Virus record (IMG/VR): IMGVR_UViG_3300025769_000767
Span: 1-25,345 of that record
DNA: 25,345 nucleotides
Direction: 5' to 3' (one strand)
From: a virus
Shown here piece by piece: positions 1,299-24,730 of the stretch. Made by a program: the position numbers and the translations under genes. Within the stretch, counting starts at the first letter, position 1; each line of letters begins with the position of its first letter. The notes beneath the pieces are model-generated. The model was given only the letters and a program-made list of their open reading frames with translations, was not told the origin of the DNA and did not search any database.

Positions 1299-3737
1299 AT
1301 GGCAACTAAGAAAAAACTACTGCAAGCAATAAAGGGCGGTTTTAGGTCTGGTAGAATTAAAACGCTGGACAACCCAAACCCTTTTTCAGCTTATAATCAA
1401 AACGATTATTTCGGCTATAGCGTATCTGTCTCAGACAGTTATGTAATAGTAGGAGCTTATTTAGAAGATGACGTTAGCGGATCTAGCGGAAAAGCGTATA
1501 TATTTAACGCATCCACTGGCGCTCTGCTTCATACGTTAGACAACCCTAGTGCGTATGACACAGGCGCAAGCGATAATTTCGGCTTTAGCGTATCTATTTC
1601 AGACAGCTACGCCATAGTAGGAGCTTATCAAGAAGATGACGCTGGCGGAAGTAATAGCGGCAAAGCCTACATATTTGACCCGTCTACTGGCGTTCTACTT
1701 CATACGTTAGACAACCCTAATGATTACAGCACAAGCCAAGATGATTATTTTGGCTATAGCGTATCTGTCTCAGACAGTTATGCCATAGTAGGTGCTTTTT
1801 TAGAAGATGACGCTAGCGGATCGTCTAGCGGCAAAGCCTACATATTCAACCCGTCCACTGGCTCTCTGCTTCATACGCTAGACAACCCTAATGCTTATAG
1901 TACAAGCGCAAGCGATTATTTTGGCCGCAACGTATCCATCTCAGACAGTTATGCCATAGTTGGTGCTTATTTAGAAGATGACGCTGGCGGATCGTCTAGC
2001 GGAAAAGCCTACATATTCAACCCGTCTACTGGCGCTTTGCTTCATACGTTAGACAACCCTAATGCTTATAGTACAAGCGCAAATGACCAATTTGGCATTA
2101 GCGTATCTATATCAGACAGTTATGCCATAGTTGGTGCTTATCAAGAAGATGACGCTGGCGGAAGTGATAGCGGAAAAGCCTACATATTCAACCCGTCTAC
2201 TGGCGCTTTGCTTCATACGTTAGACAACCCTAGCGCCTATAGTACAAGCTCAGGCGATAATTTCGGCGCTAGCGTATCCATCTCAGACAGTTATGCTATA
2301 GTAGGAGCGTATTTAGAAGATGACGCTGGCGGATCGTCTAGCGGAAAAGCCTACATATTTAACGCATCCACTGGCTCTCTGCTTCATACGTTAGACAACC
2401 CTAATGCTTACAGCACAAGCCAAGATGATTATTTTGGCTTTAGCGTATCTATCTCAGACAGTTGTGCAATAGTTGGTGCTTATCAAGAAGATGACGTTTT
2501 GGGAACTTCTAGCGGCAAGGCTTATGTATATGATAGCTCATTCAATTACAAATACACATTAAACAATGTAACAAACTCTCAATATGGAGGCTCACAGGAT
2601 GATTCATTTGGCCGCAGCGTATCCATCTCAGACAGTTATGCAATAGTTGGCGCTCATGCGGAAGATGAAGCTGGCAGTACGTCTAGCGGAAAAGCCTACA
2701 TATTTGATCCGTCCACTGGCGCTTTGCTTCATACGCTAGACAACCCTAATGATTACAGCACAAGCGCGAACGATGTATTTGGCTTTAGCGTATCCATCTC
2801 AGACAGTTATGCAATAGTTGGCGCGTATCAAGAAGATGACGCTGGCGGAAGTGATAGCGGCAAAGCCTACATATTCAACCCGTCTACTGGCGCTTTGCTT
2901 CATACGTTAGACAACCCTAACGCTTACGGCGCGAGCGCAGACGACAGGTTTGGCTATAGCGTATCCATCTCAGACAGTTATGCTATAGTAGGAGCGTATT
3001 TAGAAGATGACGCTGGCGGAAGTAATAGCGGAAAAGCCTACATATTCAACCCGTCTACTGGCGCTTTGCTTCATACGCTAGACAACCCTAATGCTTACAG
3101 CACAAGCGCAAACGATTTATTTGGCATCAGCGTTTCCATCTCAGACAGTTATGCAATAGTTGGTGCTTATTTTGAAGATGACGCTGGCGGATCGTCTAGC
3201 GGAAAAGCTTACATATTCAACCCGTCTACTGGCGCTCTGCTTCATACGCTAGATAACCCTAATGCCTATAGTACAAGCTTAAACGACCGATTTGGCTTTA
3301 GCGTATCCATCTCAGACAGTTATGCAATAGTTGGTGCTTATCAAGAAGATGACGCTAGCGGAGGTAATAGCGGAAAAGCCTACATATTTGATCCGTCTAC
3401 TGGCTCTCTGCTTCATACGTTAGATAACCCTAGTGCTTATGACACAGGCGCAAGCGATAATTTCGGCTATAGCGTATCTATCTCAGATACCCATGCAATA
3501 GTTGGTGCTTATTTTGAAGATGACGCTGGCGGATCGGCTAGCGGAAAAGCCTACATATTTAACGCATCCACTGGCTCTCTGCTTCATACGCTAGACAACC
3601 CTAGCGCCTATAGTACAAGCTCAGGCGATTTATTTGGCCGCAGCGTATCCATCTCAGACAGTTATGCCATAGTTGGTGCTTATGCGGAAGATGACGCTGG
3701 CAGTACGTCTAGCGGAAAAGCGTATATATTTAGGTAA
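1299..3737 (+). CDS. FG-GAP-type beta-propeller repeat protein (14 repeats)
   Basis: 812 residues: a 22-residue leader (basic; MATKKKLLQAIKGGFRSGR) followed by 14 near-identical repeats of 57 residues. Each repeat carries D-x-FG-x-SVSISDSYAIVGA, then EDDAGGSSSGKAYIF, then STGALLHTLDNP, the pattern of the FG-GAP_2 family whose repeats form blades of beta-propellers. The only degenerate stretch (residues about 410-431) lies between repeats 7 and 8, so the protein reads as two sets of seven. The last repeat stops after KAYIFR and lacks the STG..LHTLDNP strand, while the leader runs straight into such a strand, suggesting propeller closure. It lies among fibre genes, so a receptor-binding or virion-surface role is inferred. 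The ribosome site is weak (ggggtaaatt). Confidence 0.85.
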   Translation: MATKKKLLQAIKGGFRSGRIKTLDNPNPFSAYNQNDYFGYSVSVSDSYVIVGAYLEDDVSGSSGKAYIFNASTGALLHTLDNPSAYDTGASDNFGFSVSISDSYAIVGAYQEDDAGGSNSGKAYIFDPSTGVLLHTLDNPNDYSTSQDDYFGYSVSVSDSYAIVGAFLEDDASGSSSGKAYIFNPSTGSLLHTLDNPNAYSTSASDYFGRNVSISDSYAIVGAYLEDDAGGSSSGKAYIFNPSTGALLHTLDNPNAYSTSANDQFGISVSISDSYAIVGAYQEDDAGGSDSGKAYIFNPSTGALLHTLDNPSAYSTSSGDNFGASVSISDSYAIVGAYLEDDAGGSSSGKAYIFNASTGSLLHTLDNPNAYSTSQDDYFGFSVSISDSCAIVGAYQEDDVLGTSSGKAYVYDSSFNYKYTLNNVTNSQYGGSQDDSFGRSVSISDSYAIVGAHAEDEAGSTSSGKAYIFDPSTGALLHTLDNPNDYSTSANDVFGFSVSISDSYAIVGAYQEDDAGGSDSGKAYIFNPSTGALLHTLDNPNAYGASADDRFGYSVSISDSYAIVGAYLEDDAGGSNSGKAYIFNPSTGALLHTLDNPNAYSTSANDLFGISVSISDSYAIVGAYFEDDAGGSSSGKAYIFNPSTGALLHTLDNPNAYSTSLNDRFGFSVSISDSYAIVGAYQEDDASGGNSGKAYIFDPSTGSLLHTLDNPSAYDTGASDNFGYSVSISDTHAIVGAYFEDDAGGSASGKAYIFNASTGSLLHTLDNPSAYSTSSGDLFGRSVSISDSYAIVGAYAEDDAGSTSSGKAYIFR
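1365..3734 (+). repeat. 14 tandem 171-bp coding repeats in the propeller gene
   Basis: In-frame tandem repeats, period 171 bp (57 codons), starting at 1365. Repeat 7 is 56 codons, repeat 8 is 59, and repeat 14 is cut to 48. Long blocks are almost identical in DNA between copies (for example catctcagacagttatgc and cttcatacg), while three codons vary strongly: the residue before FG, the residue after FG, and the residue before EDD. The unit boundary between repeats 7 and 8 (2526-2591) is the only strongly diverged segment. Sub-blocks are shared in a mosaic way: repeats 2 and 13 share SAYDTGASDNFG, and repeats 6 and 14 share SAYSTSSGD. This suggests recombination between copies. Confidence 0.95.
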
Positions 3738-6274: not shown

Positions 6275-7477
6275 ATGGCTGACACAACGACAACAACATT
6301 CGGCTTAACGAAGCCAGAGGTGGGCGCATCAGCCGATAGCTGGGGTACTAAGCTCAATACAAACCTAGACACCCTTGACGATCTTCTTGATGGGACAACG
6401 GCTATCCAGCCTAACCTCACTGAAGGGTCATGGCAGGTTGGCGGTACTGCAATTGTAGCTACGGCTGCTGAGATTAATAGGTTAGACGGCGTTACTTCTA
6501 ATGTTCAAACGCAGCTAAACAATTTGAGTGACGATATTGTTAGCTTTCCCACAAGTGAAGATATTGTTGTCAATGGAGTTACAGTAGGGCGCGGCGGGCA
6601 TACGTCTAATGTTATCTTGCAGGGCGGGACAACTGGAATACATGGTGGCTTACTTGGTGTTATCATTGGTGAAGATGCTGGTGAAAATTTAACAAGCACT
6701 GCATATTGGAATACTGCTGTAGGGGCGTATGCTTTGCAGGGGGAAACTGGTTCTTGGAGTTGCACTGCGATTGGGGAAAGCGCACTGAAGGGTGACGTTG
6801 CAACTGGAGGAACTAGCAACACGGCTGTTGGCGCAAATGCTATTGAGCATGGCTCATCTGGCACAGACAATACCGCTGTGGGCGTAGATGCAATGAAAGG
6901 CGATGGAACAACTGGTGTAACAGGGGATGGAAACACGTCAATTGGCAATTTAGCGTTAGCTGACCTATCTTCAGGTGATAATAATATTGGAATTGGACGA
7001 TATGCTGGGTATGGGAGTTCAAGCCCATTCCAAGTAACCACTGAAAGCAATCGCATTGTTATGGGAAATAACAGCATAACAAACGCCTATATACAGGTGT
7101 CTTGGACTGTTACATCTGACGAAAGGGACAAGACTGATGTTGTTCCAGTTAGTCATGGGCTTGACTTTATATCGCAGTTAAACCCTGTTCACTTTAAATG
7201 GGATAAGCGTCATAAATATTTTGAGTATGATGACGATGGCAATATAACAAGCAAGCCTGCCCCTGATGGCACTCATAAAGAAGATCAGCCTTTTGTTGGG
7301 TTCTTAGCTCAAGAAGTTCAGCAGGTAGTGAATGGCACAGGCTTTGCAGACAATGTGATCGTAGATCACGAGCAAGACGATCTGTGGAAGATCAAGGAAA
7401 CTGCGCTTATCCCACTGTTGGTAAATGCAATCAAAGAATTAAAACAACGTGTAGAAGTTCTTGAAGCAGGGGCATAA
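6275..7477 (+). CDS. Tail fibre/spike with C-terminal S74 intramolecular chaperone
   Basis: 400 residues. The N-terminus ([17 protein letters not shown], then [12 protein letters not shown]) is a common fibre attachment motif. Residues about 125-260 hold YadA-head-like short repeats ([46 protein letters not shown]), a pattern of trimeric beta-structures. Residues 281-400 match the Peptidase S74 domain: SDERDK (Ser281, Lys286), [21 protein letters not shown] and a closing helix ([19 protein letters not shown]). In characterised members the domain trimerises the fibre, then cleaves itself off at the conserved Ser. It is most likely the main trimeric fibre. A good ribosome site (taggagac) precedes the ATG. 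Confidence 0.85.
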
Positions 7478-9632: not shown

Positions 9633-10012
9633 ATGCGCATAATCCTATAAGTGAATTAGAGCGTTGCCGGGGGTGGATCGAGGCGGCGTTGGAATATTCT
9701 GGTGGCACCCATGATTTTGAGGATGTAGCGCGCTCACTGTATTCGGGAGCGATGCAGTTGTGGCCTGCGCCAAAGGGGTGCATAATAACGGAAATTGTGG
9801 TATATCCTAAAAAAAAGGTACTACACGTTTTTCTAGGTGGTGGCGAATTGCAGCAAATTATGGAAATGCATAAAGATGTGATAGCATGGGCCAAGACGCA
9901 AGGTTGTGAGGCTTTAACTATGACGGGGCGCCACGGCTGGAAGAAACCATTAGCGGAGCATGGATGGCAGGCCGTGCACACGTCATACATTAAGGAGTTT
10001 GAGAATGTCTAA
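9629..10012 (+). CDS. GNAT-fold-like small virion protein (T7 gp13-like position)
   Basis: 127 residues. The pattern fits a reduced GNAT acetyltransferase fold: an N-terminal helix pair (ERCRGWIEAALEY, DFEDVARSLYSG), strands (GCIITEIVVYPKKKVLHVFL), then a turn (GGGEL), a helix (EMHKDVIAWAKTQG) and a final strand/turn (CEALTMTGRHGWKKPLAEHG). Related small proteins occur beside the ejection proteins in podoviruses, and T7 gp13 is the best-known example. The acetyl-CoA loop (Q/R-x-x-G-x-G/A) is not convincing, so enzymatic activity is doubtful and a structural or assembly role is more likely. It starts in an ATGA overlap and its 3' end overlaps the next gene by 8 bp. Confidence 0.6.
   Translation: MNAHNPISELERCRGWIEAALEYSGGTHDFEDVARSLYSGAMQLWPAPKGCIITEIVVYPKKKVLHVFLGGGELQQIMEMHKDVIAWAKTQGCEALTMTGRHGWKKPLAEHGWQAVHTSYIKEFENV
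9992..9997 (+). promoter_or_regulatory. Ribosome binding site deciding the 10005 start
   Basis: AAGGAG, seven bases before ATG 10005. The open frame extends to an ATG at 9960, but that would overlap the upstream gene by more than 50 bp with no comparable site; the 10005 start is therefore preferred. Confidence 0.7.
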
Positions 10013-11183
10013 AGGCGGCTCAACATCAACAAGCGTTGAAATCCCAAAATATATTGAGGATGCAGCGAAACGTAATTTGAATCGCGCTGAAGGTATCGCC
10101 GGGCTTGGATATGTTCCATATTACGGCGCGGATGTGGCTGCGTTCACGCCTATGCAAGAGGCTGCTTTTGGTTCAACTAACCTGGCTGCGGGTGCGTTTG
10201 GCATGCCAACAGTTGGCGCGTCAGAGCTAACCGGGATGCCAGAGGCTGAGACTTTTGCTGGCGGTATGCGTGGTTATTCATCAGCGCCAATGTACGAGCA
10301 GAGTTTGCAGGAGCTGCAAGCAAGGCGCCCAGGTCAATATGAATATATGCAAGGTTTCTTCATTGACCCAATTACTGGGGAGCGCGGTGCGATGATGGGA
10401 GATCCGATTGACTACACTGAAGGGGCGACGACAGCGCAGCGCCGCATCCCAGAGGGAGAAGGTTTTGATGGCTATGGTAATAATGATATGCCTGGAATGC
10501 CTGGAGGTTCTGGTTTCACAACATACGGCGGTAGCCAAGATATTGCGCATGGAATGCTAGACGACGCTTACTCTGATTACGGCGCACAGATCACTGCGGG
10601 GACAGCAAGTCCGGAGGATAATCCGTCATACAATGAGGGACTAGCTAACGCGAATTCTGATTATGCAGGAATAACATCTGACGACTTTACCGGTCTAAGT
10701 CAAGCAGAGCAATATGGATTGATGGGTCAATCTATGGGCGCCGCTGGGGTAAGCGGTGTTGGCGGAGGTTACGCTCAAGACGATCCCACAACGGGGATTT
10801 TTGGCGCCGCACAAGACGTAGTCGGTTCAGTTGCTTCAGCGGTTGATGATGTAGTCGGTGAAGGCGGTGAAGGCGGAGATGGCTGCGTAATCGCAACGCA
10901 CGCTGTTTCTTCTGGAGGCTTTACACCGCAAATGAAACGTGAGGCAGTTGTTTGGTGTATGCATAACCTACATGACAAGTGGTGGGGTGAGGCAATCCGC
11001 CGGGGCTACCGTTACCTTGGTAATCAAAAGATTGAGCAAGGCAAAGCACACGAACATTACCAGGAATTCCGCGATTACATCGCATTTGCGAACGGCAAGA
11101 AGCGCACTCTACTTAGCGCTATTAAATTCACATTGCGCACCGCTCAATTCTTTGCGGTGGGTATGATAAAGAAGGACGCGTAA
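10005..11183 (+). CDS. Probable ejection/tail-associated protein with Cys-box C-terminus
   Basis: 392 residues from MSKGGSTSTSVEIPKYIED. The N-terminal part (DAAKRNLNRAEGIAGLGYVP, then YYGADVAAFTPMQEAA) is a pattern found in phage internal or tail-tip proteins. The middle (about 80-290) is low-complexity Gly/Ser/Asp/Met-rich, likely disordered. Residues 294-392 form a separate domain: CVIATHAVSSGG, REAVVWCMHNLHDKWWGEA, GYRYLGNQKIEQ, HYQEFRDYI and a hydrophobic basic tail (TLRTAQFFAVGMIKKDA). The C-x-I-A-T start and EFRD motif recall the CFI-box C-terminal domain found in bacterial and phage proteins. The next gene ends in a related domain. Role: probably ejected or internal virion protein, from context. 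Confidence 0.65.
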   Translation: MSKGGSTSTSVEIPKYIEDAAKRNLNRAEGIAGLGYVPYYGADVAAFTPMQEAAFGSTNLAAGAFGMPTVGASELTGMPEAETFAGGMRGYSSAPMYEQSLQELQARRPGQYEYMQGFFIDPITGERGAMMGDPIDYTEGATTAQRRIPEGEGFDGYGNNDMPGMPGGSGFTTYGGSQDIAHGMLDDAYSDYGAQITAGTASPEDNPSYNEGLANANSDYAGITSDDFTGLSQAEQYGLMGQSMGAAGVSGVGGGYAQDDPTTGIFGAAQDVVGSVASAVDDVVGEGGEGGDGCVIATHAVSSGGFTPQMKREAVVWCMHNLHDKWWGEAIRRGYRYLGNQKIEQGKAHEHYQEFRDYIAFANGKKRTLLSAIKFTLRTAQFFAVGMIKKDA

Positions 11184-11184
11184 A

Positions 11185-12132
11185 ATGGGTGCAGCAGCAG
11201 GAGCAGGCGGAGGCAACATCTTTGGGCAAGCCGCTGGGGCAATGGGGCAGGCTAAAAGTGCTTATGGTGATTTAGCAAACTTCCAGCCAGCAAATATGCA
11301 AGCAGCCCAACTTGCAACGGCAGACATAAATCAATACATGAACCCATACACGCAGCAGGTTATTGAGCGTGGTCAGCGGGATATTGCTCGCCAGCAGGAG
11401 ATGGGGATGAACCAGCTTGGTGCGCAAGCTAGTGCGGCTGGCGCATTTGGCGGATCGCGCCATGGTGTGGCAGAGGGCGTTGCGGCTGGTGAATATGGCC
11501 GCACCGCTGCCGACTTTGCTGCGCAGCAGCGTCAACAGGCGTTTAATCAGGCACAACAGCAAGCCCTACAACAAGCTCAGTTTGAGCAAGCGGCAAACTT
11601 AGCTAATTACCAAGGTCAATTTACTGGTGCTGGGATCCAGCAGGCTGCGGCTAGTGGCTTGGGGGGATTAGGCCAGCAAGGCTTCAATATAGGCTCACAG
11701 ATTCAACAACAACAAGCGCAGCAGGGTTTACTACAGCAAGGTGTCCAGCAAGCTCTTATTGACGCAGCGAAGGGTCAGTACGCTGGGTTTACTGGTGCAC
11801 CGGGCGCGTCACTATCAGCACCACTGGCTGCACTAGGCGCAATGCCAAACCAAAGCACAACGACACAATCACAAACACCTGGTCTATTTAACTACCTACA
11901 GACTTTGGCGATGATGAAGATGTGTTGGGTGGCGCGTGAGGTTTACGGCGAGGATGATCCACGTTGGCTTGAGTTCCGCGATTGGGTTGTTGGTCACTCA
12001 CCAGATTGGTTCTTTAATGCATACGATAAATATGGCGCTCGTATCGCTAAGATTGTTAAGAAAGTGCCAATTCTTAAATCAATCATTAAGCCGTTTATGG
12101 ACGCGAAACGTAAGTCGATTGGGTATGAATAA
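11185..12132 (+). CDS. Ala/Gln-rich internal virion (ejection) protein with Cys-box C-terminus
   Basis: 315 residues. The body (about 20-235) is Ala/Gln/Gly-rich and helix-forming (MNPYTQQVIERGQRDIARQQ, AFGGSRHGVAEGVAAGEYG, then QQRQQAFNQAQQQALQQAQF), as in podovirus ejection proteins and many small tail or internal proteins. The AGAFGGSRH motif recurs in that class. Residues 247-315 are a compact domain: CWVAREVYGEDDP, WLEFRDWVVGHSP, NAYDKYGARIAKIV, then a basic amphipathic tail. This matches the CFI-box layout (Cys, A-x-x-x-YG, FRD, P, Y-x-x-x-A). It follows the previous gene by one base and its stop abuts the next start, so it is coupled to the transglycosylase. Confidence 0.65.
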   Translation: MGAAAGAGGGNIFGQAAGAMGQAKSAYGDLANFQPANMQAAQLATADINQYMNPYTQQVIERGQRDIARQQEMGMNQLGAQASAAGAFGGSRHGVAEGVAAGEYGRTAADFAAQQRQQAFNQAQQQALQQAQFEQAANLANYQGQFTGAGIQQAAASGLGGLGQQGFNIGSQIQQQQAQQGLLQQGVQQALIDAAKGQYAGFTGAPGASLSAPLAALGAMPNQSTTTQSQTPGLFNYLQTLAMMKMCWVAREVYGEDDPRWLEFRDWVVGHSPDWFFNAYDKYGARIAKIVKKVPILKSIIKPFMDAKRKSIGYE

Positions 12133-13560
12133 ATGGATTACCGCGCAGAGGCACGCCGGATAGCACAAGAGATCGGGATTGACCCCGATCTATTCGTGCG
12201 CATGATTAACCGGGAAAGCGCGTTTGATCCTACGGCGGTTAGCCCAAAGGGCGCTATCGGCTTAGGCCAGCTTATGCCAGGCACGGCGTCTGATTTGGGT
12301 GTAGACCCAAACGATCCAATCCAGAACCTCACTGGCGCAGCGCGTTACTATAAACAGCAACTTGAGGCTTTTGGAAACCCAATGATTGCGTTGGCGGCTT
12401 ACAACGCAGGGCCGGGTAATGTTCGCAAGTACGGCGGTATTCCTCCGTTCAGTGAAACGAAGAAATACGTGCAAGACATTATGAAAGGCTATGTAGGGAA
12501 TAACACAATGACACCGACATCAGCACCACTAGGCGCGTCAGCAACGACGACAACGCAAAAACCGGGCAAGGGTATGCTGCGCGGTCTGTTAGACTACGCA
12601 AGCGAGAAAAGCCCGGACACAGGCTTAACAAGGTTCCAGAGCTTTGCCGCAGCACTGGATCCACTGATTATGCCGGAGATGCGGGCTGGTACGGCTATTC
12701 GTCAAATGGGGCAAACTCAACTTGACCAAGGTAAGGTTAATAAAACCGTCGAGTGGTTAAAGAAAAACGGTTACGCTGAAATTGCGGCGGTTGTTGAAAA
12801 AAACCCTGAGATGGCGGCAACCGTCATGGGTAGCATCGTGCAGGAGAAAATTAAATCTCCAGGCGTCAAGGTTATTGGCGATAAGTTGGTGGATGAGACT
12901 GGTAAGGTGCTTTATGAGGGCGATCCTGAAGCCTTAAAGAAACTTGATGAAAAGCAGGTTACGATTGTCCGTAATTTAAGTAACGACTTAGTAAACAGAA
13001 GTTACAAGATTTACGATGAGATCGCAAATGGCTATCGCTTAATCCAAGAGGCTGTAGAAAATAAAACAGGCGTTTCGGATTACGTTTTAACTATTGCGTT
13101 TTCGAAAATACTAGATCCTGAAAGTGTTGTTAGAACTGAAGAGCAAAAAGCGGTTGCTGGCGCTGGTAGTGGGATTCAAGCGTTAGTTTCAAGCGTGCAG
13201 AATTTTATAGGGGGAACAGGTAGTTTACCTGAGCCAGTACGGCAGCAGATATTAGGCACAGCGCAGAGAAACGCTAAGTTTTATTTTGACAAGGCGCAAG
13301 GCGAATATAACAGAGCAAAAGCTACAGCTCAGTATGCAGGTATAGCTGATGAAATTATTAATGATGTAATTCCTAAGCCTACACCTCTACCGACATTTAC
13401 AAAAATTGAACCGCCAACTGAGAACGGTAATGTTGAGATCGGCGCGAACGGGCCAGTGCCTGAGGATTTAAAAGACATATACACGCAAGAACAGTGGAAC
13501 GGCTTATCAGCGGATCAAGTAAGACAACTCCTAGAAGCGAGCGACAACAATGGCGACTGA
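12133..13560 (+). CDS. Virion-associated lytic transglycosylase (SLT domain)
   Basis: 475 residues. Residues 1-120 are a GH23 soluble-lytic-transglycosylase domain: catalytic Glu28 in MINRESAFDP, then SPKGAIGLGQLMPGTA (Gly43-Pro49) and ALAAYNAGPGNV (89-97). This domain cuts the glycan backbone of peptidoglycan to give 1,6-anhydroMurNAc ends. Residues 120-475 are a helical extension without a recognised family, rich in charged coiled-coil segments, ending in a Pro-rich stretch. An enzyme fused to a long virion-type tail next to ejection genes points to local wall opening during DNA entry, rather than to final lysis. Start: ATG immediately follows the upstream stop. The 3' end overlaps the next gene by 11 bp. 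Confidence 0.85.
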   Translation: MDYRAEARRIAQEIGIDPDLFVRMINRESAFDPTAVSPKGAIGLGQLMPGTASDLGVDPNDPIQNLTGAARYYKQQLEAFGNPMIALAAYNAGPGNVRKYGGIPPFSETKKYVQDIMKGYVGNNTMTPTSAPLGASATTTTQKPGKGMLRGLLDYASEKSPDTGLTRFQSFAAALDPLIMPEMRAGTAIRQMGQTQLDQGKVNKTVEWLKKNGYAEIAAVVEKNPEMAATVMGSIVQEKIKSPGVKVIGDKLVDETGKVLYEGDPEALKKLDEKQVTIVRNLSNDLVNRSYKIYDEIANGYRLIQEAVENKTGVSDYVLTIAFSKILDPESVVRTEEQKAVAGAGSGIQALVSSVQNFIGGTGSLPEPVRQQILGTAQRNAKFYFDKAQGEYNRAKATAQYAGIADEIINDVIPKPTPLPTFTKIEPPTENGNVEIGANGPVPEDLKDIYTQEQWNGLSADQVRQLLEASDNNGD

Positions 13561-15493: not shown

Positions 15494-17575
15494 ATGGAAC
15501 CTAAAGAAAAGAGTTTCACCGAAATTGAGGGTATCGTGCAAGACGCGATTGCCCAGGCTGTTGATTTTGTTGAAAGCGAAATAACGCACGAACGTATCAA
15601 GGCCCAGCGCTACTTTGACGGCGAAGTTGATATTGGGTACGAGAATGGAAGATCCAGCGTTGTCGCCACAAAAGTACGTGATGTTGTACGTGCGGTAAAA
15701 CCAAGTCTGATGCGTGTGTTTATGTCTACTGCGCGCCCGGTGGAGTTTATCCCGAAAGGCCCAGAGGATGTAGCGTTTGCGGAGCAGGCGTCAGATTACA
15801 TGCACTACGTGTTCCAAAAGAACAACGGGTTCCGAGTTCTTAATGACGCATTCCACGACGCTCTTATCAAAAAGCAGGGCGTCGTAAAGGCGTACTGGGA
15901 AACAAGATATAACAGCGAAACTTACACGATCACCGGGCTAACTCAGGAGGAGCGTGACGCACTTCTGAACGAGCTAGATATTTCGCTGATTGAAGAGACA
16001 ATGACATCGAGCATCACCGTTGACCAAACTGGCGCGGAGGTGGAGCTGCCGTCATATGACTTGAAAGTTAGCCGGGTTACCCCGGAGGGTGCGTTGCGTA
16101 TTGAAAGCGTACCACCGGAAGAATTCTTTGTTAATTCTCAGGCGCGCACTTTACAGGACGCCTATGTGGTGGCGCACCGTACAGAAATGCGCGTTGGCGA
16201 CTTGGTGGCGATGGGTTACCCGTTCGAGCAGGTTTACGACTTAGACAGCTTATACGGCGCGTCAGACATCAGCGAGGCAGAAGAAATAGAGCGCCGGGGC
16301 TACAGCCAAGACGATTACGAGGATCAGTCCGGTGATCCCGCAATGCGCAACGTGGCGATCACCGAAGCCTACATGCGTTTAGATGTAGAGGGTACAGGCG
16401 TGCCAACTTTGCATAAATTTATCTGCGGCGGCAGTAAGTACAAATTGCTGGACTACGAGTTGGTTGACGAGATTCCGTTTGCGGTGTTCGAGGTAGACCC
16501 GGAGCCACACACAATCTACGGGCGTTCGCTTGCAGAGTTAATCATGGATGACCAGGACGCAAGCACAGCGATTATTCGTGGGATCCTCGATAACGTCGCC
16601 ATGACGAATAACCCACGTATCGGGATCGTTGACGGCGCGGTTAATATTGACGACGTGCTTAACAACGAAATTGGCGCAATCGTGCGTATGCGTCAGGCTG
16701 GCGCGATCCAAGACTTAGCCGTGCCATTTACGGCGGGCCAAACACTTGGCGCATTACAGTACATGGACGCCCTAGTTGAGCAGAAAACAGGTGTATCACA
16801 AAACGTGGCACTCAACCCGAATGCGATGCAGTCCACCACTGCGGCGGGCGTACAGGCGACGGTAGACGCAGCGGCTGCGCAAGTTGAGGTGATGGTTCGT
16901 AACCTGGCGGAAGGTATGCGCCAACTATTTGCGTTGATGTTAAAATTGCACGTCAAGAATGTAGACGAAGAGCAGTTGATGCAGCTCAACGGTCAGTACA
17001 TCCCAGTTCGCCCTGACGTGTGGAATTCTGAAATGGACGTGCAAATTAATGTCGGGTTAGGCACCGGACGTGAGCAGGAGAAAGCCGCAGCGCTAAACGG
17101 TATGTTGCAAATCCAGCAGCAAGTTTACCAGCAGTACGGCGCGACAAACGGTTTGGTTTCACTTACAAACATCCGTAACACTTTGGCGGATATTTTGGCA
17201 GCGTCAGGTATCAGAAACGCGGAACGCTACTTTGCGCCAATGACGCCTGAGGCAGAACAGCAGATGATGCAGCAAGCGCAACAGGCACAAGCGCAGGCAC
17301 AACAGCAGCCAATGCCTGATCCTAACGCGGCGATCTTGCAGGCAGAGCAAATGAAGGCTCAGGCTAAAATGCAGACAGACATGGCGAAGCTGCAATTTGA
17401 AGCACAGAAAGCAGCGGCAGACAACGATCTAAAACGTGACCAGATGGCACAGGATCTCTTGGTGGATGCAGCTAAAATTGCGGGTCAGTACGGAACTAAT
17501 GTTGACGTGGCGCGCATCAAGGCAGAACAAGATAAAGTACGTCAGGTCGCAAACATCGCGCAGGGTAGACAATGA
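15494..17575 (+). CDS. Portal protein, P22 type
   Basis: 693 residues, close to P22 gp1 (725). The dodecameric portal is the channel through which DNA enters the capsid and leaves. Recognisable parts: an N-terminal helix bundle (YFDGEVDIGYENGRSSVV, VRDVVRAVKPSLMRVF, ARPVEFIPKGP), a wing region (VKAYWE, then SRVTPEGALRIESVPPEEFF at about 195-215), a motif typical of this family (VVAHRTEMRVGDLVAMGYPF), a stem and crown (YGRSLAELIMDDQDAS, IIRGILDNVAMTNNPRIGI), and a long Ala/Gln-rich helical C-terminus (EQQMMQQAQQAQAQAQ) like the P22 portal barrel. A good ribosome site (aaggataaaac) precedes the ATG. Confidence 0.88.
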   Translation: MEPKEKSFTEIEGIVQDAIAQAVDFVESEITHERIKAQRYFDGEVDIGYENGRSSVVATKVRDVVRAVKPSLMRVFMSTARPVEFIPKGPEDVAFAEQASDYMHYVFQKNNGFRVLNDAFHDALIKKQGVVKAYWETRYNSETYTITGLTQEERDALLNELDISLIEETMTSSITVDQTGAEVELPSYDLKVSRVTPEGALRIESVPPEEFFVNSQARTLQDAYVVAHRTEMRVGDLVAMGYPFEQVYDLDSLYGASDISEAEEIERRGYSQDDYEDQSGDPAMRNVAITEAYMRLDVEGTGVPTLHKFICGGSKYKLLDYELVDEIPFAVFEVDPEPHTIYGRSLAELIMDDQDASTAIIRGILDNVAMTNNPRIGIVDGAVNIDDVLNNEIGAIVRMRQAGAIQDLAVPFTAGQTLGALQYMDALVEQKTGVSQNVALNPNAMQSTTAAGVQATVDAAAAQVEVMVRNLAEGMRQLFALMLKLHVKNVDEEQLMQLNGQYIPVRPDVWNSEMDVQINVGLGTGREQEKAAALNGMLQIQQQVYQQYGATNGLVSLTNIRNTLADILAASGIRNAERYFAPMTPEAEQQMMQQAQQAQAQAQQQPMPDPNAAILQAEQMKAQAKMQTDMAKLQFEAQKAAADNDLKRDQMAQDLLVDAAKIAGQYGTNVDVARIKAEQDKVRQVANIAQGRQ

Positions 17576-22648: not shown

Positions 22649-22732
22649 ATGACACAATTTGTATATGAAGCACCAGAGTTTGAAGAGATTGAAGATGGCG
22701 CATGGCGCATTCCAGACTCTAATATTAGCATT
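22649..22732 (+). repeat. Exact 84-bp direct repeat, copy 1
   Basis: Bases 22649-22732 are identical to 22903-22986, 254 bp downstream. The identity begins exactly at the start codon of both genes and ends after codon 28; upstream and downstream bases differ at once. Confidence 0.95.
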
Positions 22733-22906
22733 GTGGAATTAATAACCTTTGATAACCTTTGCAACAAATGGGCGGCATTTCTTGACCGCGAGAACTTGCC
22801 CGCGGAATGGGATGCACAAGAAGCCATATTGCACGATGATTTAACCGCCGCGCAACGACAATTCGTCACTGAGTTTATCACAGATTGGGAAGGTTTAGAC
22901 ACATGA
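22649..22906 (+). CDS. Small acidic protein, N-terminal duplicate module
   Basis: 85 residues. The first 28 residues (MTQFVYEAPEFEEIEDGAWR, then IPDSNISI) are identical to those of the next gene, at the DNA level as well. The remainder (VELITFDNLCNKWAAFLDRE, then NLPAEWDAQEAILHDDLTAA, then QRQFVTEFITDWEGLDT) is a Trp-rich helical domain of a kind I know as a conserved phage hypothetical. The protein is strongly acidic. The strong ribosome site and promoter-proximal position suggest early, high expression, as in host take-over proteins. Function unknown. Its stop overlaps the next start (ATGA). Confidence 0.7.
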   Translation: MTQFVYEAPEFEEIEDGAWRIPDSNISIVELITFDNLCNKWAAFLDRENLPAEWDAQEAILHDDLTAAQRQFVTEFITDWEGLDT

Positions 22907-22986
22907 CACAATTTGTATATGAAGCACCAGAGTTTGAAGAGATTGAAGATGGCGCATGGCGCATTCCAGACTCTAATATTAGCATT
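22903..22986 (+). repeat. Exact 84-bp direct repeat, copy 2
   Basis: Second copy of the 28-codon module, starting at the ATG of the second gene inside an ATGA overlap. Confidence 0.95.
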
Positions 22987-23118
22987 CAAGACTGTAAGCA
23001 TTATTGCGGATTTTACGCAGTCACTGAAGATTTAGGAGATGTAGTTAAAGACTTAGCTTTCCCAAAAACTCTTGCGGAGGCAAAGAAGATTGCGCTTGCC
23101 GCAGCGTTTAACTCATAG
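22903..23118 (+). CDS. Small protein sharing the duplicated N-terminal module
   Basis: 71 residues from the ATG at 22903, chosen over an upstream in-frame ATG at 22885 because it forms ATGA with the previous stop and matches the paralogue start. Residues 1-28 equal those of the preceding protein; residues 29-71 are a different domain (IQDCKHYCGFYAVTEDLGDV, then VKDLAFPKTLAEAKKIALAA). The shared piece may be a common interaction tag with different effector ends. Alternatively, it is the residue of a recent recombination. No known family for either half. Confidence 0.65.
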   Translation: MTQFVYEAPEFEEIEDGAWRIPDSNISIQDCKHYCGFYAVTEDLGDVVKDLAFPKTLAEAKKIALAAAFNS

Positions 23119-23667: not shown

Positions 23668-23879
23668 TGGAAACATTCTATGTCTTGCTATTCAGCTACA
23701 CACTACAAGGCTACCCAGTGGAGCGCACGTTGCTTCTGGAAAGCTCTGCGCAGTGTAATACTGCAATACGCGCCAATGAAGGTGTGGCAACGATGTTAGG
23801 CGCGGATCTGTTCTGCATCGACACTGGGCGTATCTCAAAGTCGATCAGGCCACGCCTGCGTCCGGAGGCAACGCAATGA
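23667..23879 (+). CDS. Small hypothetical protein, possibly exported
   Basis: 70 residues. ATG 23667 gives TGATG coupling; a GTG at 23664 in frame is the alternative. A hydrophobic N-terminus (METFYVLLFSYTLQGYPV) could be a weak membrane or export signal. Two Cys residues (AQCNTAIRANEG and LFCIDTG) could pair outside the cytoplasm. The C-terminus is basic (SKSIRPRLRPEATQ). I recognise the general look from uncharacterised phage mini-proteins but no function. Its stop overlaps the methyltransferase start (ATGA). Confidence 0.6.
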   Translation: METFYVLLFSYTLQGYPVERTLLLESSAQCNTAIRANEGVATMLGADLFCIDTGRISKSIRPRLRPEATQ

Positions 23880-24730
23880 AGTACGGCAGCGTATGCTCAG
23901 GCGTCGAAGCCGCGACAGTTGCGTGGCACCCGATTGGGTGGGCGCCGCAGTGGTTTAGTGAAATTGAGAAATTCCCTTCAGAGGTGTTGCAACATCACTA
24001 CCCAGACGTGCCTAACTTTGGCGATATGACAAAATTTAAGGAGTGGAGCGATGACCCAATTGACCTTCTTGTCGGAGGAACCCCATGCCAATCATTCAGC
24101 GTCGCAGGGTTGCGAAAAGGATTGGATGACCCGCGTGGTAACCTCATGCTTACCTATCTTGGAATTGCTGACAGATATAAGCCCAAATGGCTTGTCTGGG
24201 AAAACGTCCCCGGTGTCTTGTCAAGTAACAAAGGACGGGACTTTGGAACCTTCCTCGGGGCGCTGGGGGCGCTCGGGTATGGGTTCGCCTACAGAGTGCT
24301 TGACGCTCAATATTTCGGAGTGGCCCAGAGACGCAGACGTGTGTTTGTTGTCGGATACCTTGGAGACTGGAGACGTGCCGCAGCGGTTCTATTTGAGCGC
24401 GAAAGCCTGTCAGGGCATCCTGCGCCGAGCAGAGAAGCGTGGGAAAGAATTGCCGACACAATTACGGTCGGCGCTAATCAGTACAGCGGGTTTATCGGAG
24501 AGCCAGTAGATACTGTTTATAGTAGGTCAATTAGACGCCTGACACCCATTGAGTGCGAGCGCCTGCAAGGCTTCCCCGACAATTACACGCAAATCCCGTG
24601 GCGCAACAAAGCACCAGAGAATTGCCCTGACGGGCCTCGATACAAGGCGATGGGCAACTCCATGGCGGTGCCAGTGATGCGGTGGATCGGGGAGAAAATA
24701 CAGATGGTAGAGGATATTACAGATGGGTAA
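23876..24730 (+). CDS. DNA (cytosine-5) methyltransferase
   Basis: 284 residues with all main C5-methyltransferase motifs: SAM site SVCSGVEAATVAW (5-17), catalytic Cys71 in GGTPCQSFS, ENV at 110-112 (WENVPG), QRRRRVF (151-157), LTPIECERLQGFPD (222-235) and GNSMAVPV (260-267). It transfers methyl from S-adenosylmethionine to C5 of cytosine. The target-recognition region (about 160-215) is short, so the recognised sequence cannot be predicted. No restriction enzyme gene is nearby, so this is an orphan enzyme, most likely protecting phage DNA from host restriction or modulating gene expression. It is embedded in the overlapping mini-gene operon. Confidence 0.92.
   Translation: MKYGSVCSGVEAATVAWHPIGWAPQWFSEIEKFPSEVLQHHYPDVPNFGDMTKFKEWSDDPIDLLVGGTPCQSFSVAGLRKGLDDPRGNLMLTYLGIADRYKPKWLVWENVPGVLSSNKGRDFGTFLGALGALGYGFAYRVLDAQYFGVAQRRRRVFVVGYLGDWRRAAAVLFERESLSGHPAPSREAWERIADTITVGANQYSGFIGEPVDTVYSRSIRRLTPIECERLQGFPDNYTQIPWRNKAPENCPDGPRYKAMGNSMAVPVMRWIGEKIQMVEDITDG

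What the first reader, a model, noticed from the sequence alone, without database searches (positions are those of the whole stretch)
10884..12129. Related Cys-box C-terminal domains on two adjacent ejection-region proteins
The 10005 and 11185 genes have different low-complexity bodies, but both end in a compact domain starting C-x-x-A and containing E-F-R-D plus a basic amphipathic tail. The second closely follows the CFI-box layout known from bacterial proteins of unknown function. Sharing by neighbouring structural genes suggests a common targeting or assembly tag, for example docking to the portal barrel or to the host envelope during ejection.
Basis: partly seen in the sequence, partly recalled or inferred. 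Interest (0 to 1): 0.5.

Follow-up and report, generated by a model that had tools for sequence, protein, structure and literature searches.

The report
Swappable caps on phage ejection proteins
Two neighbouring genes of a marine phage look like the two halves of one DNA-ejection protein, each ending in its own small helical domain that begins with a near-unvarying cysteine; such domains are traded among phage proteins, and one of them sits where related phages carry a folding helper of a self-cleaving family.

Summary
Both C-terminal domains are real, at the stated coordinates, and conserved. The second (B, 11923-12129) is a divergent relative of the bacterial CFI-box: profile-profile probability 95%, but below NCBI's cut-off. 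The first (A, 10884-11180) is a separate phage module. Profiles do not link A to B, and the shared "EFRD" lies in different predicted helices. They share a leading Cys, the box C-x-[IV]-A and the order of four predicted helices, so common descent is possible, not shown.

Beyond the finding: genes 10005 and 11185 correspond to the N- and C-terminal halves of one ejection protein that is a single gene in other phages. The single-gene form ends in an S74 chaperone in 42 of 45 distinct C-termini. On separate C-halves the same slot, about 10 residues after GLFxY, holds S74, B or nothing. A and B come and go independently: of 94 gene pairs, 17 have both, 55 A only, 20 B only, 2 neither.

Best reading: linker-tethered, exchangeable assembly caps on virion proteins. 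Partner and chemistry are unknown; docking to portal or envelope is untested.

The parts
10005..11183 (+). N-half ejection-protein gene (392 aa) ending in Cys-box domain A
   Evidence: ORF (longest ORF starts at 9960; start 10005 fits the relatives). 18 of 30 N-terminal relatives hit phrog_4287, the window's own does not at E 0.01; L120 homologue residues 2-83 match phrog_4287 6-96, E 4e-4.
10005..10214 (+). conserved N-terminal core of the N-half (about 70 aa)
   Evidence: Profile of this stretch (30 sequences) hits residues 2-82 of the single-gene protein of MW202496, E 2e-7.
10215..10883 (+). variable low-complexity stretch before domain A (boundary by eye)
   Evidence: Composition of the 30 residues before A over 118 contexts: G 0.23, S 0.19, D 0.12.
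10884..11180 (+). domain A: Cys-box, predicted four-helix core plus fifth helix
   Evidence: AlphaFold2 pLDDT 85.7; 223 of 229 IMG/VR pattern stretches encode a relative; no tblastn match in 50,697 phage records with two A queries; C-terminal in all 326 hits.
11185..12132 (+). C-half ejection-protein gene (315 aa) ending in Cys-box domain B
   Evidence: phrog_4287 'DNA ejection protein' E 1.3e-12, residues 12-232 on profile 82-293.
11881..11922 (+). GLFNY motif and 9-residue junction: slot where B, S74 or nothing is attached in relatives
   Evidence: Residues from GLFxY to B: median 9 (n 15, range 7-17); to S74: 10 (n 6, 9-11); to bare C-terminus: 10 (n 42, 7-88).
11923..12129 (+). domain B: divergent CFI-box relative, predicted four-helix bundle
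   Evidence: AlphaFold2 pLDDT 92.5; hhalign to CFI-box 95%, E 3e-8; NF041770 11.7-16 bits, under cut-off 40.
12133..13560 (+). neighbour: SLT lytic transglycosylase (ejection-region marker)
   Evidence: PF01464 E 1.3e-21.
15494..17575 (+). nearby portal protein
   Evidence: PF23899 SU10_portal E 8.2e-187.

Best explanation
Genes 10005 and 11185 encode the N- and C-terminal halves of a podophage ejection protein that is one polypeptide in other phages (supported by profiles; which state is older is not shown). Each half carries an exchangeable C-terminal cap: domain A on the N-half, and domain B, a CFI-box relative, on the C-half (shown by comparison of relatives). B sits where related proteins carry an S74 chaperone domain (shown). 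From that I infer that the caps are assembly modules: small helical bundles that self-associate or bind a common partner, so that several copies of an otherwise low-complexity ejection protein are gathered during virion assembly, or again in the host envelope after ejection. The gathering role, the partner and the role of the leading Cys are inferred.
For: Split: the L120 N-half matches phrog_4287 6-96 and the window's C-half 82-293. Profiles of the two halves both hit the single 412-aa protein of MW202496 (E 2e-7 and 1.9e-24) and one ORF in each of 67 of the 80 loci (thresholds 1e-2 and 1e-3). The window genes lie 1 base apart. Slot: single-gene proteins end in S74 in 42 of 45 distinct complete C-termini, in nothing recognised in 3; separate C-halves in the loci up to L520 end in nothing recognised 56, B 40, S74 6, of 102 (those loci were mostly fetched by A or B, so the shares are biased); junction length is alike in all three. 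S74 is PF13884 over its cut-off in L055 and L057. The cultured phage OANV2 has the split pair with S74 and no A. Modularity: A on many bodies, at the very end in 326 of 326 hits; B on phage proteins of 262 to 1370 aa, incl. HMO-2011 gp25, and in bacteria at the end of a Poly_export protein and twice in VWA proteins. B is CFI-box-like. Four-helix models; top VIA-align match of both is 7o6v, a head-to-tail polymerising four-helix domain (PMC7614096, passages read).
Against: The 7o6v match is weak (Foldseek E 6.5 for B, 5.7 and only tenth for A; Z 4.4 and 6.4, which the tool calls common), and the paper says that two close relatives of that fold do not polymerise. 56 of 102 separate C-halves show no cap, so a cap is not essential. 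I found no oligomerisation, virion proteomics or partner data for any member. Four of ten bacterial CFI-box proteins looked at have a transmembrane-like segment after the box, others have weak TPR or Zn-ribbon hits: no single role suggests itself. In L136, L141-L144, L147 and L150 a B-ending protein seems to hold both halves, but the N-half match is marginal (E 0.007 to 16).
Confidence: 0.45

Rival explanations
1. Envelope docking: the caps bind or insert into the host envelope after ejection, a use taken over from bacterial envelope proteins.
For: Bacterial members on a Poly_export protein and VWA proteins with an N-terminal hydrophobic segment (L255, L262, L263, L245); a transmembrane-like segment after the CFI-box in 4 of 10 proteins examined (L525, L530, L532, L541; L531 has a shorter one by eye); B helices 3 and 4 amphipathic with net charge +3 and +4, A helix 5 +4.
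Against: Neither window domain has a transmembrane-like segment (best 19-residue hydropathy 1.16 and 0.93). Other CFI-box proteins have weak TPR or Zn-ribbon hits or, by eye, a TIR domain (L522), so membrane proximity is not general.
Confidence: 0.25
2. Self-cleaving cap: the leading Cys acts as the Ser of S74 does and releases the cap after assembly.
For: B stands at the same junction as S74. The S74 modules there begin SD...K, the spacing of the Ser-Lys dyad of endosialidases and MYRF (S578, K583; one passage of PMC3742443; my pattern required it, so 67 of 67 is by definition). Cys is likewise the first residue of A and B; Cys1 72 of 72 in A.
Against: By eye no His, Asp or Lys is kept across A, B and CFI-box as a partner; residue -1 is F/M/L/I in 133 of 159 B contexts but G/S/D in 114 of 118 A contexts; B also occurs inside bacterial proteins; no solved self-cleaving fold was matched.
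Confidence: 0.08
3. A and B are one homologous family, diverged beyond profile detection. This can be true together with any of the functional readings.
For: Both begin C-x-[IV]-A after a linker; same order of the first four helices; same top VIA-align match over those helices; hhalign of A to CFI-box runs from Cys1 when forced and 194 of 200 shuffles score lower.
Against: A vs B is at noise (50 of 200 shuffles); A vs CFI with Cys held is reached by 35 of 300 shuffles, and without the box z is about 0 for both; the EFRD motifs are not equivalent.
Confidence: 0.4

Closest known systems
CFI-box-CTERM domain (NCBIfam NF041770)
   Same: B aligns from Cys1 over 64 columns and is C-terminal; profile-profile probability 95%.
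   Different: B has CWVAREVYG, a shorter stretch around helix 2, and scores far below the cut-off; the A protein does not hit the model.
S74 chaperone of endosialidase (PF13884)
   Same: Occupies the same C-terminal slot, about 10 residues after GLFxY, in homologous ejection proteins.
   Different: No PF13884 hit for the window protein; starts with Cys instead of Ser-Asp; predicted small helical bundle.
phrog_4287 'DNA ejection protein'
   Same: The 11185 body matches at E 1.3e-12; relatives of the 10005 N-terminus match its first 96 positions.
   Different: Two genes in the window, one in MW202496 and in 67 loci; caps A and B instead of S74.
MYXO-CTERM / myxosortase substrates
   Same: C-terminal tag with an invariant Cys (PMC11980579, abstract and outline seen).
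   Different: No transmembrane-like segment in A or B; longer, folded domains.
VEL polymerising domain (PDB 7o6v/7o6w)
   Same: Top VIA-align match of both models (A Z 6.4, rmsd 2.8, 68 aligned; B Z 4.4, rmsd 3.5, 67 aligned).
   Different: Plant protein, 8-12% identity, weak scores; may be only a common four-helix arrangement.

Membership tests
CFI-box-CTERM (NF041770), domain B | score at or above NCBI's curated cut-off of 40 bits | tested here: not met
   11.7 bits in the whole protein, 16 bits for the domain alone
CFI-box-CTERM (NF041770), domain B | homology over the whole domain from the leading Cys | tested here: met
   hhalign 95%, E 3e-8, columns 1-64 to 1-70; 200 shuffles max 20.9 vs 42.3; 28 of 75 aligned members hit NF041770 at E 0.01 (the 75 include 9 canonical CFI-box rows; the call does not say which rows hit)
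CFI-box-CTERM (NF041770), domain A | hit to the model or significant profile similarity | tested here: not met
   no hit for the window protein; hhalign 0.5-2.2%, 6 of 200 shuffles as good
A and B as one family | significant profile-profile similarity | tested here: not met
   0.7%, 50 of 200 shuffles as good
A and B as one family | same fold | tested here: inconclusive
   same predicted helix order and same top VIA-align match, but no solved structure and no direct superposition
S74 chaperone | PF13884 match | tested here: not met
   no Pfam hit for either window protein at E up to 10
phrog_4287 DNA ejection protein | profile match, C-half (gene 11185) | tested here: met
   E 1.3e-12
phrog_4287 DNA ejection protein | profile match, N-half (gene 10005) | tested here: inconclusive
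   window protein no hit; 18 of 30 relatives hit at E 0.01
MYXO-CTERM-type sorting tag | Cys motif followed by transmembrane helix and Arg-rich tail | tested here: not met
   no transmembrane-like segment in A or B by a hydropathy window
VEL polymerising domain | head-to-tail polymerisation | not testable with these tools
   structural match only, Z 4.4 and 6.4

The most novel reading that the evidence does not exclude
The Cys-box domains are a second kind of self-processing virion cap: a small helical counterpart of the S74 chaperone in which the leading Cys takes the part of the S74 Ser, oligomerising the ejection protein and then cutting itself off, with the bacterial CFI-box the cellular version of the same chemistry.
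Probability: 0.06. Interest if true: 0.8.

Novelty: new variant of a known kind. Interest (0 to 1): 0.5.

Why it matters
It ties a bacterial domain named only for its motif (the CFI-box) to a concrete machine, phage DNA ejection, where a relative of it stands in for a domain of known function at a defined position. That gives a handle on what CFI-boxes do. It also shows an ejection protein split into two genes with each half capped separately, a further case of the domain swapping described for ejection proteins (PMC8954989, passages read). Domain A marks proteins in at least 223 IMG/VR stretches although two A queries found nothing in 50,697 deposited phage records.

Tried and rejected
Rejected: EFRD as a shared motif (different helices, not kept in distant A). 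Rejected: A and B as obligate partners (17 of 94 pairs have both). Rejected: B as a plain member of NF041770 (score). PDB sequence searches gave nothing for A and two chains at E 0.3 (SufB, partial) for B; Foldseek against the PDB gave nothing under E 2.5 for A and 6.5 for B. A was not found in 199 genomes of the phylum of G002 (a record titled Candidatus Kuenenia, so Planctomycetota; the tool warns that without a positive control an empty answer shows nothing). No paper in the held library contains 'CFI-box' or any of five box peptides; nothing more was searched for prior reports of this domain. Term searches of the OANV2 and HMO-2011-type papers showed no proteomics of these proteins (passages only).

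Cap types used a narrower S74 pattern, so the A/S74 against A/none split may shift by a few; one search gave, with a different rule for duplicates, A 70 and none 24 for N-halves, none 53, B 48, S74 9 for C-halves. In one search ORFs cut at the 3' end and duplicate C-termini were dropped (N-halves: 296 ORFs gave 86; C-halves: 293 gave 102; single-gene: 68 gave 45).

Full report
What is there. Gene 10005-11183 (392 aa) ends in a 99-residue domain A at 10884-11180, gene 11185-12132 (315 aa) in a 69-residue domain B at 11923-12129; both start at a Cys. They are followed by an SLT transglycosylase gene (12133-13560), one more gene, and a portal gene (15494-17575); the 11185 body matches phrog_4287, DNA ejection protein, at E 1.3e-12. 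The window is a virus record classed by IMG/VR.

Domain B. NF041770 (CFI-box) is the only NCBIfam model it touches: 11.7 bits in the whole protein, 16 bits alone, against a cut-off of 40. Against a profile of 16 CFI-box sequences from bacterial genomes and viral contigs, a profile of 99 B sequences gives 95% probability, E 3e-8, over the whole domain from Cys1; 200 column shuffles reach at most 20.9 against 42.3. A mixed profile then matched 18 of 199 genomes of the phylum of G002; of the 30 matches printed (three of them B-type), 27 begin at Cys1 and three match only from position 17 on, without the box. I read B as a divergent branch of a CFI-box superfamily. Some of these, such as L249 and probably L229, look like phage contigs by eye. 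In bacteria it ends a Poly_export protein (L255) and appears twice, internally and at the end, in VWA proteins of about 1,570-1,600 aa (L263, L245).

Domain A. 223 of 229 IMG/VR pattern stretches encode it, a wider pattern gave 235 of 285, and two A queries matched none of 50,697 phage records. It was terminal in all 326 hits (duplicates included) and the bodies of the diverse members printed differ widely; the preceding 30 residues are G/S/D-rich. Cys1, Cys25, His30 and the WWGEA core are present in 72 of 72 distinct sequences (the core was part of the fetching pattern, the Cys and His were not); one sequence outside that set, L081, has Phe at 25. dN/dS is 0.04-0.07 in four of six pairs, two are saturated; for B 0.04, 0.07, 0.18 and 0.41 with growing distance.

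Are A and B related? A against the CFI-box is a little better (0.5-2.2%, 6 of 200 shuffles), but 35 of 300 shuffles do as well when Cys is held, and with the Cys box removed nothing is left. Predicted structures: B has helices at 7-13, 19-29, 33-52, 55-70 (pLDDT 92.5); A at 7-14, 20-33, 38-56, 60-74, 81-103 (pLDDT 85.7), Cys at residue 6 in both. B's FRD is in helix 2, A's EFRD in helix 4. 7o6v is the top VIA-align match of both over their first four helices (A Z 6.4 among 101 chains aligned, B Z 4.4 among 4); Foldseek ranks it first for B and tenth for A with E above 5. I keep common descent as possible, not shown.

Two genes, one protein. The L120 homologue of 10005 matches phrog_4287 positions 6-96, and 18 of 30 N-terminal relatives match that family and no other at E 0.01 (the window's own does not). 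Profiles of the two halves hit consecutive parts of the single 412-aa protein of MW202496 and one ORF in each of 67 of the 80 loci. Single-gene forms ending in B: L249 (C-half profile E 3e-11, N-half likeness by eye) and, marginally, L136, L141-L144, L147 and L150 (N-half E 0.007 to 16). In the 77 A genes listed with a downstream gene, that gene starts 1 base after the stop codon or overlaps it by 1 base. OANV2, an Octadecabacter podophage assigned a P22-type neck (PMC9239159, passages read), has the split pair, without A and with S74.

The slot. Single-gene proteins end in S74 in 42 of 45 distinct complete C-termini, in nothing recognised in 3. Separate C-halves (loci up to L520 and the window) end in B (40), nothing recognised (56) or S74 (6) of 102. 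The cap begins, or the chain ends, a median of 9-10 residues after GLFxY in all three cases (B n 15, S74 n 6, none n 42). N-halves end in A (62) or nothing (24) of 86. Over 94 distinct neighbouring pairs: A+B 17, A+none 47, A+S74 8, none+B 20, none+none 2. A and B thus occur independently of each other.

How it may work. In endosialidases and MYRF the S74/ICA domain cuts itself off by a Ser-Lys dyad (one passage of PMC3742443); that it is an intramolecular chaperone acting as a trimer is from abstracts in a search listing. A domain that stands in for it at the same junction most likely serves assembly. In P22 the ejection protein gp7 affects packaging of the others (PMC4992974, passages read); whether the window's protein is a gp7 counterpart was not tested. 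I commit to exchangeable assembly caps (0.45). Envelope docking (0.25) rests on the bacterial relatives: four of ten CFI-box proteins looked at have a transmembrane-like segment after the box, but A and B do not. Self-cleavage by Cys1 (0.06-0.08) is the boldest reading that is not excluded.

Limits. Retrieval was by A, B or relatives, so shares are biased; no coordinates of the models were available for superposition; the host of the window phage is unknown.

Noticed in passing
window 1299-3737: 812-aa protein made of more than ten near-identical repeats of about 55 residues (DNPNAYSTS...SISDSYAIVGAYLEDDAGGSSSGKAYIFNPSTGALLHTL), FG-GAP-like by eye.
   Followed up: no
window 6275-7477: Tail-fibre-like protein ending in an S74-type chaperone (SDERDKTDV...) by eye, so the phage seems to have an S74 module elsewhere while its ejection protein carries B.
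   Followed up: no
window 22649-22906 and 22885-23118: Two adjacent small ORFs share the stretch MTQFVYEAPEFEEIEDGAWRIPDSNISI: a local duplication.
   Followed up: no
window 23876-24730: C5 cytosine methyltransferase by eye (GGTPCQSFS).
   Followed up: no
L537, L538, L545: Proteins matching the CFI-box profile only from position 17 on: the Cys box is missing but the RxFRD...YY...SP part is kept.
   Followed up: partly
L522: CFI-box at the end of a protein that by eye has a TIR domain and Sel1-like repeats.
   Followed up: no
L309, L313, L315, L316, L317 (one genome, G102): A CFITTA[VI]C variant of the CFI-box in several proteins of one genome, one (L316) with ankyrin-like repeats by eye.
   Followed up: no
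L263, L245, L231, L238 and others: Planctomycete proteins of about 1,600 aa carry two copies of domain B, one internal and one terminal, preceded by Gly/Met-rich stretches.
   Followed up: partly
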